A DNA stretch of 52,803 nucleotides, taken from an archaeon CG10_big_fil_rev_8_21_14_0_10_43_11 (lineage in GTDB: Archaea > Nanobdellota > Nanobdellia > PEZQ01). The notes beneath the pieces are model-generated. The model saw only the letters and a list, made by a program, of their open reading frames with translations. It had not been told where the DNA came from and made no database searches. Positions 15,482 through 21,601 of the stretch are shown piece after piece (positions within the stretch are counted from its first letter, which is position 1; each line of letters starts with the position of its first letter). A program made the position numbers and the translations under genes. The stretch covers positions 1 through 52,803 of the forward strand of contig PEZQ01000009.1 in assembly GCA_002763265.1 (NCBI GenBank), read 5' to 3'.

Positions 15482-16216
15482 TCATTTTATATTAAATGCT
15501 TTTAGAATTCTTTTTTTGCACGTATCAAAGTTATCGTAAATATTTGTTAATCTTTTTATTTCTTCATTATAGATGCTTTTTTTCTCTTCTAGTTTTTCTT
15601 TAAATTCTTTTTTGTTAAATTTCTTATTATATGTTTTTAATTTCTTATTTATTAGTTCAAAATCTATTTTCGCCCCATTTAGTAATAATTCATTCAAGTC
15701 ATATACATCTCTTGCTTTGTACCTCGTGATTATTGCTCTTACTTTTTCTGACAATATTTCTTCTTCGTTGAGTGCCAACAAGAAATATTGTGGCAAATCT
15801 TTATATATGGGTCTTATTATTTTTTTTAGCAATGCATTATATGTGTCGTGTTCTCTGAAGTCAAAAGATATTTTACAGAGTGATTGTTTAGAGCCATCAT
15901 ATAATATTCCTTGAAATTGCACACTGAAACTTGTTCCGAATCTTGTTTTATGGCGGTCTATGATTTTTGTTTTAAAGACGGTTTCTATGAATTTTATTAT
16001 TGTATTAATGTCTAAACTAACATAATTAAAGTCTAAGTCTTCCGAGAATCTTTTTATTCCGTAGCATTTTTGCAGGCAAGTTCCTCCTTTAAAGTATATT
16101 GTATTAAATTTTTCAAATAGTTTTGCAAGAATAAGATGCTGGTAGTAATCTAATTCTAATTGTGCTAAATTATAATTTAGTTTTGCAGAATATGTTTTTA
16201 GTTCATTTTTTTCCAT
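15482..16216 (-). CDS. abiEii: AbiEii-type nucleotidyltransferase toxin
   Basis: A 244-residue protein of the AbiEii/AbiGii nucleotidyltransferase family, the toxin half of type IV AbiE systems. The signature KGGTCLQKCYGIKRFSEDLDF (43-63) holds the GG(T) motif and the ED-x-D metal site. The later segment SEKVRAIITRYKARDVYDL is also typical of the family. It is far more AT-rich than its neighbours, pointing to horizontal acquisition. The ATG directly abuts the stop of the upstream antitoxin gene, preceded by GAGG. It ends 47 bases from tRNA-Gln. Confidence 0.88.
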   Translation of the reverse strand: MEKNELKTYSAKLNYNLAQLELDYYQHLILAKLFEKFNTIYFKGGTCLQKCYGIKRFSEDLDFNYVSLDINTIIKFIETVFKTKIIDRHKTRFGTSFSVQFQGILYDGSKQSLCKISFDFREHDTYNALLKKIIRPIYKDLPQYFLLALNEEEILSEKVRAIITRYKARDVYDLNELLLNGAKIDFELINKKLKTYNKKFNKKEFKEKLEEKKSIYNEEIKRLTNIYDNFDTCKKRILKAFNIK

Positions 16217-16927
16217 TTATAATTCCTCATTTATTATAAGTTTCCATTCAGTGTTTTTTATTCCTTTATTACTTAAATTTTTGTTTAATTTTTCATATTT
16301 ATTGTTTATTTTCAGTTTTTTTATTTCTATTCCACATAATTCTAGCAAATATCCAGTTCTTTTGTTAAGTGTTGAAGAATTAATCATTCTGAGATATTCG
16401 CTTATCAAATCTATATTTAATATCTCTTTATATTTTTTTATTAAATCAACAACATCTGTTAAATAGACTTTTGAAGAAAAATATATACAATCAATTATAG
16501 TCTTTTCAATAGAAGATATAAACACATCTGTGTTGTTTATTTTAATTTTTTCATAGCCAAAAAACATTTCTTTTTTTACTTTGTGAAATTGAATTTTTAT
16601 TTCTTTAATTTTTTGGTTTTTTAATATATTTTTTGTTATAAGGTCAAGGTTGTTGTATCTTTGCGTTGTACTTTCATAATACTCCAATGCGGAATGAAGT
16701 GCTATGTATGATTCTTTGTAGATATTTTGTAGTAAAAACTTATTTTCAATAGCATTTATTGAATAATAGCCTTTTTTTAACCTGAAAATTTTCTTTTGCT
16801 TAGCTAATAAGTTTAGCTTAGTTTTTATAACTGTATTTGATTGACCGGTTATTTTTATAACATCATTTATTGTAAATATTTCTAGTTGAAGTTCTTGCAA
16901 TTTTTGTTGAAGAAATATATAGTTCAT
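16217..16927 (-). CDS. abiEi: AbiEi-type antitoxin / HTH regulator
   Basis: A 236-residue protein. Residues 15-60 form a winged helix (NDVIKITGQSNTVIKTKLNL, then KKIFRLKKGYYSI). The C-terminal domain carries ISSIEKTIIDCIYF, typical of AbiEi antitoxin-type regulators. It lies directly upstream of and abuts abiEii, the canonical order. Known AbiEi proteins repress their own operon and block the toxin; the palindromic GTTATATAAC (16953-16962), about 30 bases before the ATG, is the likely promoter. Extreme AT bias suggests transfer. Confidence 0.82.
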   Translation of the reverse strand: MNYIFLQQKLQELQLEIFTINDVIKITGQSNTVIKTKLNLLAKQKKIFRLKKGYYSINAIENKFLLQNIYKESYIALHSALEYYESTTQRYNNLDLITKNILKNQKIKEIKIQFHKVKKEMFFGYEKIKINNTDVFISSIEKTIIDCIYFSSKVYLTDVVDLIKKYKEILNIDLISEYLRMINSSTLNKRTGYLLELCGIEIKKLKINNKYEKLNKNLSNKGIKNTEWKLIINEEL

Positions 16928-18188: not shown

Positions 18189-19346
18189 TTAGAATACTAA
18201 AGGCGCGAAGAGGTTAAATAAGAAAAGAAAAAGGACAGTTGAGAACAGTGCTCCCGCGATTTTAACTGCCTTTTTCTCAGGAAGCACGTACCTGAGCGTG
18301 TCAAAAAGGATGTGACCCCCGTCGAGCACCCAGATTGGTACAAGATTAATCACGCCAACCCCAAAATTGAGAAACGCAACCCAATTGAGCAGGGTAAGGA
18401 ACATAAGGACTATTTGGGGGAGGAATCCAAAACGCTCTTTTGCGCCCGCGCTAATCGTGCTTGATTGTTGAAATGTCACGCCAAGATATGCTTGGGACGC
18501 GTTGTCAGGATTTTGGCCTGCACTAACCACAAACTCCTCGCCGCTCACTGCTCCAAGCACGATTGTATCTCCCGGTTTTGCGCCTTCAAGCGCGCTAATA
18601 AACGCGCTCATGTTCTGCGTTTGCGTGCCGTTCACACTTGAAACAATCATGCCGCTTGAAAGACCTGCATTGGCTGCAGGCAAGCCATCTTTAACGCTTA
18701 CGAGTTCAACCCCGTTGAGCTCAACAAGACCGCTTGCTGCAGGTATAAGCACGTAACCAAGTGAGATAGTTATGAGAAATGCAAGTGCAATGTTTGCAAA
18801 GGGTCCTGCTGCGGCAACACGCATGCGCTCAATGCCTCGCGCGTTTTTCATTTCTTTTTCATCGGGTTCAACAAAGAAGAGAGGGATAAAAAGCAGGAAG
18901 CCAAATCCGTCGTGTTTGAGCTTGATTTTTTGCGCTGCAGCAGCAAGTGCGTGGCCAATTTCGTGCACGAACACAAGTATGACAAGGCTAATAATACCAT
19001 ACCAGAAGGGCACAAAGACCGGTGAACCGGGAATGTGGATTCCAGGGATAATAAGACCGAATTGTGCGGGGGCATCAGTTGGTTTGATAATTTCAATCAC
19101 GCCGTCAAGAAATGTTTTGACAATAACAATCATGAAATAGAAAGATACAACAATGCCAATGGTTGCAAGCGCGATAATGAGGGGCGCAATTTTTTGTCCA
19201 ACGCGTTCAATAAGTTTTAAGCCTTTTTTTGAGCGGTACAAGAACATAATGCCCAATTGGCGCTCAAACTTGTCGCGATTTCGGTACACAAAAAAGAGCA
19301 CAATCGCGTAAAAAATAATTGCGCTCACAATATCAAGTGAAACCAT
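18189..19346 (-). CDS. Site-2-type intramembrane metalloprotease (M50) with PDZ domain
   Basis: Intramembrane zinc protease of the S2P/RseP family, 385 residues. The active-site HEIGH (128-132) lies in a membrane helix, and NLVPIWVLDGGHILF carries the LDGG metal ligand near the C-terminus. Between them is a PDZ domain (about 215-290, AANAGLSSGMIVSSVNG). Several membrane helices surround these. I choose ATG 19346 (AAGGA just upstream); ATG 19373 and longer in-frame starts up to 19442 are alternatives. The substrate is unknown. Confidence 0.9.
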   Translation of the reverse strand: MVSLDIVSAIIFYAIVLFFVYRNRDKFERQLGIMFLYRSKKGLKLIERVGQKIAPLIIALATIGIVVSFYFMIVIVKTFLDGVIEIIKPTDAPAQFGLIIPGIHIPGSPVFVPFWYGIISLVILVFVHEIGHALAAAAQKIKLKHDGFGFLLFIPLFFVEPDEKEMKNARGIERMRVAAAGPFANIALAFLITISLGYVLIPAASGLVELNGVELVSVKDGLPAANAGLSSGMIVSSVNGTQTQNMSAFISALEGAKPGDTIVLGAVSGEEFVVSAGQNPDNASQAYLGVTFQQSSTISAGAKERFGFLPQIVLMFLTLLNWVAFLNFGVGVINLVPIWVLDGGHILFDTLRYVLPEKKAVKIAGALFSTVLFLFLFNLFAPLVF

Positions 19347-19419
19347 AACAGTCCTTGCAGGACGTGCATACATAAAAGCGTATTGTTTAGTAAGCCTGTT
19401 AAGGAGGATTGGGCAAACG

Positions 19420-19430
19420 TTTAAAAACGA
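19420..19430. promoter_or_regulatory. Shared TATA-like element between the S2P gene and tRNA-Lys
   Basis: The near-symmetric ACGTTTAAAAACG lies about 35-40 bases before tRNA-Lys on the plus strand. On the minus strand it lies upstream of the S2P start. It could serve both genes. Motif-based only. Confidence 0.35.
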
Positions 19431-19459
19431 GAACGCAATCAAAAAAGAATACGATTGTG

Positions 19460-19533
19460 GGGCTCATAGCTCAGGCTGGTAGAGCACTTGGCTTTTAACC
19501 AAGGGGTCGGGGGTTCAAATCCCTCTGGGCCCA
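19460..19533 (+). tRNA. tRNA-Lys, anticodon TTT
   Basis: A 74-nt cloverleaf. The acceptor stem GGGCTCA/TGGGCCC (one G-T pair) is followed by discriminator A. The anticodon stem CTTGG/CCAAG has loop CTTTTAA, so the anticodon is TTT (Lys). The T arm is GGGGG-TTCAAAT-CCCTC. No intron and no encoded CCA. The T-run CTTTTTT at 19541-19547 is a likely terminator. The last 16 bases of this gene are duplicated 64 bases downstream. Confidence 0.97.
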
Positions 19534-19545
19534 CTCACTACTTTT
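19518..19545 (+). repeat. Direct repeat copy 1: 3' end of tRNA-Lys and its flank
   Basis: A 28-bp segment covering the tRNA-Lys T-arm/acceptor 3' half, discriminator and terminator flank. It is exactly repeated at 19582-19609. Duplicated tRNA 3' ends are typical of attachment sites left by integrases. Confidence 0.9.
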
Positions 19546-19581: not shown

Positions 19582-19609
19582 AATCCCTCTGGGCCCACTC
19601 ACTACTTTT
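19582..19609 (+). repeat. Direct repeat copy 2 of the tRNA-Lys 3' end
   Basis: Exact 28-bp copy of 19518-19545. It is not part of a second tRNA. It overlaps the 3' end of the minus-strand LonB-like gene: the last codons (Glu-Lys) and the TAG stop at 19602-19604 fall within or at the edge of this copy. Confidence 0.9.
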
Positions 19610-20510
19610 CTAAGACGGTTTCAAGCAATTCTTTTTTGTCTACAACACCGCGCAGTTTTCCGTTATAAAATGTAGTGCGCACGCGCGTATCAATATCAAA
19701 ATAAGGGATAAGAATGCGCACGTCTTGTGATTTGCTTGTCATAATTCTGTTATTAAGGCGCACCAAAGGGGCAAGACGTTTATCAGGGTAGACTGATAAC
19801 GCGAGTACCACATCCTCCCGCACACGCTTCTGTTCTTGAAGAGAACGCACGGCCACGTACATACCGGCAAGCAGGGATTCGTCAAGCGTGAAAAAATTAG
19901 ATAAATCAAACAAAACGTTATCGGGTTCGTGACCAAGCAAGAATGATACGCGCTCAAGAAATCCTGATGCATCAGAACCATCTTTTGGAGGAATCACGCG
20001 CACGCCGTCACGCGGGTCTTCAAGCGCAATAACAGGAGCAACATATCCCACGTATTCTGCTTCACGCCCATACTCGCTTACGGTTCCATTAGGAAGCTGG
20101 TCGTAGCCGATTTCAGAAAGCACATTCACGCGACCAACTCCGTTTTTGAGCGTGCGAATACCCGATTGTCCGAGCAATTGCTCAAGGCTTTTTTGTGTTT
20201 TTGTGCGTGTTTGTTTTTCTCCAAGAAGTATGTGTTCTTTCTCGATATGTTCACTTTTATGTTCTCGCGCAATCCCATCTGCAGTAATACCAATATTAAA
20301 TGAGCGGCGACCAATATGCATCTCATCTAGATTGTCTGCAAAACGCGAACACACGTCAAAATATTCTTCAACTGCATGGCGCGACCAATCGGCCCATCCT
20401 TCGCGTTCTGACCAGTCACGCAAAAGAAGAGCCAGATGACGCTCGTTGCGCGTTGTGCGTGCAATGCGATTTTGTATGTGGTCAATACCACCATACAAGG
20501 CACGGTTCAT
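19602..20510 (-). CDS. LonB-like protein, C-terminal half (AAA+ alpha-domain plus degenerate Lon protease domain)
   Basis: A 302-residue protein that aligns by eye with the second half of archaeal LonB. Residues 1-10 (MNRALYGGID) fit the post-sensor-1 segment, 44-50 (RHAVEEY) the REAVEE helix, and 65-80 the sensor-2/alpha-domain. GVGRVN at 124-129 is the conserved entry to the Lon protease domain. The catalytic features look lost: the GDSAS serine motif is replaced by TLDESLLAG (208-216), and the lysine motif PVGGVTPK by APLVRLNNR (247-255). ATG 20510 overlaps the upstream stop as ATGA. It is probably the non-proteolytic partner of the upstream protein (inference). Confidence 0.65.
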   Translation of the reverse strand: MNRALYGGIDHIQNRIARTTRNERHLALLLRDWSEREGWADWSRHAVEEYFDVCSRFADNLDEMHIGRRSFNIGITADGIAREHKSEHIEKEHILLGEKQTRTKTQKSLEQLLGQSGIRTLKNGVGRVNVLSEIGYDQLPNGTVSEYGREAEYVGYVAPVIALEDPRDGVRVIPPKDGSDASGFLERVSFLLGHEPDNVLFDLSNFFTLDESLLAGMYVAVRSLQEQKRVREDVVLALSVYPDKRLAPLVRLNNRIMTSKSQDVRILIPYFDIDTRVRTTFYNGKLRGVVDKKELLETVLEK

Positions 20511-21601
20511 GAGCGCGGCAGTGAGGCGGATGATTTTTCCTCGTTCATGTTTATAAGGTACAATGCGGAGTGGAAGCGTGACCAATCATCTTTATCGCAA
20601 AATACCACTTTGTTTTCTTCAATAACGTGTTCAAGCAGTAGTGCTTCATCTTTTGAAAAACCATCAGGGTTTTCAATCGTGATGGGTTTGCCATTTCCTG
20701 AAAGCAGGAGTGAGTTTTTTGCGCGAAATTGAGGGGCAAGGTCGCTTGCTGATTCATCGTAATAGCCCTGAAGCACTTTTTTATCTTCACGGCCTTTAAT
20801 TGTTGGCACGCGGTTTGAATGGCGAAAGAGTTCAACAGGATTCTTTTTTTCATTCTTATTAACATATTTGTATCCAAGACTGACTGCAAGTCCATAGAAT
20901 GTCCAGTTTACAAGAAAACCAAAGTCGCGCCACAAATCTTTGATAAGCATTGATGAGACAACGCCCGCATCTTCTGAATTGTAGCGCACAACTGCCTCAG
21001 ATATGAGATTATTAACTGCAAGAAGCGGAACAGAAAACAAGCCAAGCAGGCCTGCTGCAGCCCCGCCGACTTTGAGCGCGCGCTTGATTTTTGCCTTTCG
21101 GTTATAGCGCTTAACATACGACATGCCCTCTCCTCCCCCAACTAATGTAAAATCACACTCAAGCGCTTGCTTTTTGTCATGAACCATGACACCATCATAA
21201 AAGCGCAAGCCTTCTTTTTTGGCAACAAGATAAAAATAATCTTCAGTGCACGCGTGAAGAAGGCTTTTTCCACTCCCATAATCCCCGCTCAAAAGATGAA
21301 CAAGTGAGTGGCCTGCTTCTTTTTGCAGCGTGTCACACATGGCGCGCTCGCTCACGCCCTGTTTTTTCAGCTCATATCTTCTCTGCTGCAACTTTTTTTC
21401 AGATAAAACATAGCGGTGCACTAAATCTTTGAGGCGTTTTATCACATCATCATACCCAACAACGCGCAAAAAAGGGTCGTTATGTGCAAATAAAGAAATA
21501 CTTGGAAGCTGGGCAGTTGTTTTATACGTGCTCCATAGTTCGCCTTTGTTAAGAAGCGCTTCAAAATCATCTTTGTCAAAGTTGGCGTTCACAATAGACA
21601 A
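20507..21601 (-). CDS. LonB-like membrane AAA+ protein, N-terminal half
   Basis: A 364-residue protein with Walker A GDYGSGKS (106-113), then VGGGEGMSYVKRYNRKAK (154-171), then two hydrophobic helices (about 177-200 and 226-246). Archaeal LonB has this same order: P-loop, P-x-GEG-K-KA segment, membrane insertion. The Walker B counterpart is ITIEN (307-311) instead of hydrophobic-DE, and ALYLINMN (346-353) sits at the sensor-1 position. ATP hydrolysis is therefore doubtful although binding is likely. The start is non-ATG: TTG 21601, about 27 bases after AAACTTAAAC, or GTG 21592. It ends by ATGA overlap with the next gene. Confidence 0.65.
   Translation of the reverse strand: MSIVNANFDKDDFEALLNKGELWSTYKTTAQLPSISLFAHNDPFLRVVGYDDVIKRLKDLVHRYVLSEKKLQQRRYELKKQGVSERAMCDTLQKEAGHSLVHLLSGDYGSGKSLLHACTEDYFYLVAKKEGLRFYDGVMVHDKKQALECDFTLVGGGEGMSYVKRYNRKAKIKRALKVGGAAAGLLGLFSVPLLAVNNLISEAVVRYNSEDAGVVSSMLIKDLWRDFGFLVNWTFYGLAVSLGYKYVNKNEKKNPVELFRHSNRVPTIKGREDKKVLQGYYDESASDLAPQFRAKNSLLLSGNGKPITIENPDGFSKDEALLLEHVIEENKVVFCDKDDWSRFHSALYLINMNEEKSSASLPRS

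What the first reader, a model, noticed from the sequence alone, without database searches (positions are those of the whole stretch)
19602..21601. A LonB protease split into two overlapping genes, with degenerate ATPase and protease motifs
Seen: two genes joined by ATGA encode, in order, Walker A (GDYGSGKS), a GGGEG-KRYNRKAK segment, two membrane helices, a Walker B counterpart ITIEN, a sensor-1 position (INMN); then in gene two MNRAL, RHAVEE, an alpha-domain, GVGRVN and a Lon-like C-terminal domain. Established: archaeal LonB has this architecture in one chain with Walker B hydrophobic-DE, GDSAS serine and PVGG-x-x-x-K lysine. Here these read ITIEN, TLDESLL and APLVRLNNR. Inference: a two-subunit membrane AAA+ pseudoprotease, perhaps a regulator or adaptor of true LonB.
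Basis: partly seen in the sequence, partly recalled or inferred. Interest (0 to 1): 0.75.

Follow-up and report, generated by a model that had tools for sequence, protein, structure and literature searches.

The report
Frameshifted gene for dead LonB-like protein
The "split LonB protease" looks like one archaeal gene broken by a single-base reading-frame shift; it belongs to a small, previously unnamed family of membrane LonB look-alikes that have lost their ATP-burning and protein-cutting residues and nearly always sit next to the same partner membrane protein.

Summary
The 'two-subunit' reading is probably wrong. All nine well-covered homologues (Parvarchaeota/Nanoarchaeota-type MAGs) are single 718-837 aa chains. 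Re-reading one base at an A5 run (20534-20538) joins the window ORFs into one 666-aa chain that aligns without a gap across the junction; the 8 residues coded before gene 2's ATG fit the family better than 99% of random segments. So this is one gene with a -1 frameshift: a mutation, an assembly error or, less likely, a functional split.

The degenerate sites are a family trait. Walker B DE is EN in all; Lys is Arg in all; the Ser column is Ala, Ser or Thr, and the window copy keeps Ser (DES) in the better register. The substrate pore loop is deleted. Purifying selection is strong. An adjacent membrane-protein gene co-occurs perfectly (8 of 8 carriers, 0 of 24 non-carriers in one order) but is missing in the window. 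True LonB is present, itself split by a split intein. Most likely function: a non-hydrolysing, non-proteolytic membrane ring acting as scaffold or regulator; inferred.

The parts
20507..21601 (-). Upstream ORF (gene 1): family N-terminal part, Walker A GDYGSGKS, membrane insert, Walker B counterpart ITIEN, sensor-1 Asn (INMN); last 8 codons (SSASLPRS) are out of the family frame
   Evidence: (hhalign to family 99.7%, 4.5e-27)
20534..20538 (-). A5 run (GAGGAAAAATC); a -1 step here puts the chain into gene 2's frame with no length change relative to relatives
20507..20510 (-). ATGA: stop of gene 1 overlapping ATG of gene 2 (possible re-initiation site)
19602..20585 (-). Downstream ORF (gene 2), open frame back to 20585: Arg-finger helix (KIIRLTAALMNR), AAA+ lid, Lon-type C-terminal domain with DES (Ser column) and LNNR (Lys column = Arg)
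19582..19609 (+). Second copy of a 28-bp exact direct repeat of the tRNA-Lys 3' end; holds the stop codon and last codons of gene 2
19460..19534 (+). tRNA-Lys (TTT), convergent with gene 2; first repeat copy 19518-19545 covers its 3' end
18189..19442 (-). Next gene on the same strand: M50 (site-2 type) membrane metalloprotease with PDZ; stands where relatives have the partner gene, but is unrelated to it

Best explanation
This is one gene, not a designed two-gene protein. It encodes a divergent paralogue of archaeal LonB (a membrane AAA+ ring protein with a Lon-type domain), interrupted in this assembly by a -1 frameshift at an A5 run. It belongs to a rare family ('pseudo-LonB') that has lost the catalytic Walker B glutamate, the protease lysine and the substrate-pulling pore loop, but keeps Walker A Lys-Ser/Thr, the sensor-1 Asn, an arginine-finger Arg, the membrane insert and the Lon fold. 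Shown: homology, single-chain relatives, site replacements, purifying selection, and an adjacent partner gene that co-occurs perfectly in one order. Inferred: the protein binds nucleotide without hydrolysing it, assembles into a membrane-anchored Lon-like ring, and acts as a scaffold or regulator with its partner rather than degrading proteins. In this genome, where the partner was not found and the frame is broken, the gene is either an early-stage pseudogene or intact and mis-assembled.
For: Nine loci are single chains, aligned through the junction. The joined chain scores 252.3 bits against the family profile, versus 118.4 + 127.1 for the pieces. The 8 residues coded upstream of gene 2's ATG score better than 99% of 1000 random segments, while gene 1's own tail scores below average. 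Codon usage shifts frame before the ATG, not at it. The joined chain groups with the family, 100/100, away from canonical LonB. E-N at Walker B and Arg at the Lys column are invariant; pore loop deleted. L079/L080 dN 0.13 with saturated dS; L083/L084 5 synonymous vs 2 replacement changes. Partner in 8 of 8 carriers and 0 of 24 non-carriers in the order; partner not found in G000. Canonical LonB present.
Against: Only one genome holds the frameshift, so error, mutation and function cannot be told apart. ATGA at the junction would suit coupled translation. Neither ORF has a further stop or frameshift, and other genes in the window look intact, so wholesale decay or a poor assembly is not evident. 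The AAA+ part of the family model is low confidence. The Ser-column register is ambiguous by one residue. The scaffold role rests on lost residues and gene neighbourhood only.
Confidence: 0.62

Rival explanations
1. Functional split: gene 1 and gene 2 are translated separately by ATGA-coupled re-initiation and the two chains assemble into one pseudo-LonB.
For: ATGA overlap in the right frame; no other disruption in either ORF.
Against: The break lies inside the AAA+ fold, between sensor 1 and the Arg finger; gene 1's last 8 residues do not fit and the family-like residues lie before gene 2's ATG; no relative is split. Given a frameshift, an ATGA at the first stop is not rare (rough estimate one in ten).
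Confidence: 0.15
2. Assembly or sequencing error in a homopolymer: the real gene is one intact 666-aa frame (a sub-case of the best explanation).
For: Single-base difference at an A run; everything else in frame.
Against: Only five A's; no general excess of broken frames seen in the window; no reads available.
Confidence: 0.35
3. Programmed -1 frameshifting yields the full-length chain.
For: A-rich site G GAA AAA; the -1 frame restores the family sequence.
Against: Not a canonical slippery heptamer, no notable downstream structure (z -1.08), and no relative has a comparable site.
Confidence: 0.04
4. The protein is still an active LonB-type protease with unusual active-site residues (Ser with Arg).
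For: Window copy has Ser at the helix start (DES) in the ungapped register.
Against: Lys is Arg in every member and Ser is not kept in most; Walker B Glu is Asn and the pore loop is gone.
Confidence: 0.06

Closest known systems
Archaeal LonB (MEROPS S16 LonB; NCBIfam TIGR00764; solved example 3k1j)
   Same: Order of parts, membrane insert inside the AAA+ module, lid, GRVN linker, Lon-type C-terminal domain; best hit by profile and fold
   Different: E-N for D-E, Arg for Lys, Ser not conserved, pore loop deleted, TIGR00764 score 25-39 bits against a cut-off of 516.6
LonC (MtaLonC, Lon-like protease without ATPase)
   Same: Lon-family ring protein that lost ATP hydrolysis but can still bind nucleotide (PMC3391209)
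   Different: LonC keeps an active protease site and has no membrane segment (PMC3391209); here the protease dyad is also lost and a membrane segment is kept
RadA/Sms and BrxL (Lon-like domain without protease motif)
   Same: Non-proteolytic Lon-type domain in a ring ATPase (PMC10164562)
   Different: They keep ATPase motifs and act on DNA, with no LonB membrane insert (PMC10164562 and general knowledge)
Second LonB-like protein of the same genome (G000:C3:157855-160128, 935 aa)
   Same: LonB paralogue in the same cell
   Different: Keeps GDS, GGxxxK, Walker B DE and the pore loop; lies outside the pseudo-LonB clade

Membership tests
Archaeal LonB protease (TIGR00764) | Whole-protein score above the curated cut-off | tested here: not met
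   Window ORFs: no hit; single-chain relatives 25-39 bits against 516.6
Archaeal LonB protease (TIGR00764) | Walker A lysine and Ser/Thr | tested here: met
   GDYGSGKS in the window, K[ST] in all
Archaeal LonB protease (TIGR00764) | Walker B Asp-Glu | tested here: not met
   Glu-Asn in all nine aligned members, ungapped
Archaeal LonB protease (TIGR00764) | Catalytic Ser in GDSAS | tested here: inconclusive
   Gap-free helix register puts Ser237 (DES) of the window on the catalytic Ser; other members Ala, Ser or Thr; a gapped register gives Glu/Asp
Archaeal LonB protease (TIGR00764) | Catalytic Lys | tested here: not met
   Arg in all members, window included
Archaeal LonB protease (TIGR00764) | Membrane segment inserted in the AAA+ module | tested here: met
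   One clear and one weak hydrophobic helix between Walker A and B
Archaeal LonB protease (TIGR00764) | Substrate pore loop (HDPFQSGGLGT) | tested here: not met
   5-6 residues deleted and motif absent in all members
LonC | Active protease dyad, no ATPase, no membrane segment | tested here: not met
   Lys replaced by Arg; membrane segment present
Pseudo-LonB family defined here | Groups with the single-chain degenerate proteins rather than LonB | tested here: met
   100/100 support
Pseudo-LonB family defined here | Adjacent downstream partner gene | tested here: not met
   No match in G000; sensitivity was not calibrated for so distant a genome
Pseudo-LonB family defined here | Hexameric membrane ring | not testable with these tools
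   Needs purified protein

The most novel reading that the evidence does not exclude
The pseudo-LonB and its partner form a dedicated non-degrading membrane AAA+ module that regulates true LonB, for example by mixed rings, and in this organism the ring subunit is really made of two separately translated chains while true LonB is assembled by trans-splicing.
Probability: 0.08. Interest if true: 0.8.

Novelty: new variant of a known kind. Interest (0 to 1): 0.45.

Why it matters
Lon relatives are known that lost the ATPase (LonC) or the protease site (RadA, BrxL). This family appears to have lost both while keeping the membrane-ring architecture, is under strong purifying selection, and comes with a partner gene, so a non-enzymatic use of a LonB scaffold can be tested directly. 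It also shows that a 'two-subunit protease' read from one MAG can be a one-base frameshift.

Tried and rejected
Pfam and NCBIfam scans of the two window ORFs gave nothing. First genome-contig scan with gene 2 alone found nothing; the family alignment found eight loci. No relatives in viral contigs. Programmed frameshifting considered and set aside. I first read the Ser column as Asp/Glu facing Arg (a salt-bridge idea); the gap-free helix register and the models put Ala/Ser/Thr there, so I dropped it. The full-length model was poor in the AAA+ part and was used only for the Lon domain. Searching this genome for the 636-aa G088 alternative partner gave nothing.

Full report
What is there. On the minus strand, ORF 20507-21601 (364 aa) is followed by ORF 19602-20585, whose first ATG is at 20508-20510; the TGA of the first overlaps that ATG. 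The window lies in a 1.0-Mb archaeal assembly (99.6% complete) in the same class as Nanoarchaeota/Parvarchaeota-type genomes. Only one other genome of its order is held, and it has no match.

LonB kinship. Gene 2 hits 105 of 371 genomes of the phylum: mostly canonical LonB at weak scores (about 620-680 aa), but also four single-chain proteins in one genus at up to 5e-31. A family profile and a titled search gave eight loci, L078-L085, and a further member, L094. The best solved structure by sequence is 3k1j, T. onnurineus LonB; the model of gene 2 matches it best as well (E 1.9e-10). Family against canonical LonB: hhalign probability 99.3%, E 2e-20, over 535 columns. Single-sequence Pfam/NCBIfam scans of the window ORFs find nothing.

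One gene, not two. In every relative that covers the region the chain is continuous. A -1 step at the A5 run 20534-20538 gives LYLINMNEEKIIRLTAALMNRAL in the window against LISASINTEKLPLIIESLQNRIN in L003/L078, with no gap. The joined chain scores 252.3 bits, against 118.4 and 127.1 for the pieces. Replacing the 8 residues IIRLTAAL by random ones matched or beat the real score in 10 of 1000 trials; gene 1's own tail SSASLPRS scored 243.4, below the random mean of 244.8. Codon usage favours gene 2's frame upstream of its ATG. The break therefore most likely lies in one gene. Mutation and assembly error cannot be separated here; other window genes look intact. Programmed frameshifting lacks a structure signal (z -1.08).

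Family features. Across nine members: Walker A K[ST] kept; Walker B D-E replaced by E-N in all; sensor-1 Asn and one Arg-finger Arg kept; pore loop HDPFQSGGLGT deleted; catalytic Lys replaced by Arg in all. The Ser column depends on a one-residue register. With no gap inside the helix that begins at the catalytic Ser, and with the helix start in both models (window residue 237 of gene 2, L079 residue 639), the column is Ser in the window and L083, Thr in L085 and L094, and Ala in the rest. MAFFT on a smaller set and hhalign place a gap and give mostly Asp/Glu. Either way the dyad is not conserved. Selection is purifying: L079/L080 dN 0.13 with saturated dS; L083/L084 5 synonymous vs 2 replacement changes. 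The tree groups the window with the family at 100/100; its branch is long.

Partner gene. Immediately downstream (from about 14 nt overlap to 2 nt gap) lies a family of 235-264 aa proteins (A3) in L079-L085, L077 and L094. In G088 a 636-aa protein with an HExxH motif takes its place and shares only the C-terminal tail. In the order of G088, the 8 genomes with the pseudo-LonB are the same 8 with an A3 match, and none of 24 others has either (the G088 match is the tail only, E 0.003). In the phylum sample, A3 is found only in carriers. The family has no significant Pfam match. In the window genome neither partner type was found. Downstream there are instead a convergent tRNA-Lys and an M50 protease gene, and a 28-bp exact repeat of the tRNA 3' end overlaps the stop codon of gene 2. 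A deletion or integration at the tRNA that removed the partner, followed by decay, would fit, but is speculation.

True LonB. All carriers but one incomplete genome (G384) have a LonB above cut-off. In the window's own genome it lies at G000:C7:121016-123448 and is encoded as two ORFs separated by a 57-bp spacer with in-frame stops, ending and beginning with intein halves: apparently a naturally split intein at DPFQ|SGGLG. A second LonB-like paralogue with intact sites lies on C3.

How it may work. Shown: loss of hydrolysis, pulling and cutting residues with the fold kept, plus a linked partner. Inferred: a nucleotide-binding, non-hydrolysing membrane ring used as a scaffold or regulator together with the partner. 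Precedents are LonC, with dead ATPase and live protease (PMC3391209), and BrxL, with a Lon-like domain lacking the protease motif (PMC10164562); MEROPS also lists non-peptidase Lon homologues (PMC9569914). LonB is essential in Haloferax (PMC9263693). My literature searches found no description of this family; only an open-licence library was searched.

Noticed in passing
G000:C7:121016-123448 (L070:1017-3449, minus strand): The genome's canonical LonB is two ORFs with a 57-bp stop-containing spacer; the first ends in an intein N-half, the second starts with a 39-aa intein C-half (...DVLATN|SGGLGTP): apparently a naturally split intein in LonB. L012 appears to carry a cis intein at the same site.
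   Followed up: partly
window 19518-19545 and 19582-19609: Exact 28-bp direct repeat of the tRNA-Lys 3' end, second copy overlapping the stop of gene 2; attachment-site-like footprint.
   Followed up: partly
window 15482-16927: AbiEii-type toxin gene plus an adjacent likely antitoxin gene next to tRNA-Gln, in a 23-24% GC island (surroundings about 40-45%).
   Followed up: partly
L073:9329-11239: In G088 a 636-aa protein with HEYSH replaces the usual partner and shares only its C-terminal tail (VNSLRKDLGLENI), suggesting the tail as docking motif.
   Followed up: partly
G000:C3:157855-160128 (L071:921-3728): 935-aa second LonB-like paralogue with intact Ser, Lys and Walker motifs and a long insert.
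   Followed up: no
G000:C1:9982-11832 (L072:983-2833): 616-aa protein with signal-like N-terminus and a small Lon-type domain (GGPSAGAS), apparently outside-facing.
   Followed up: no
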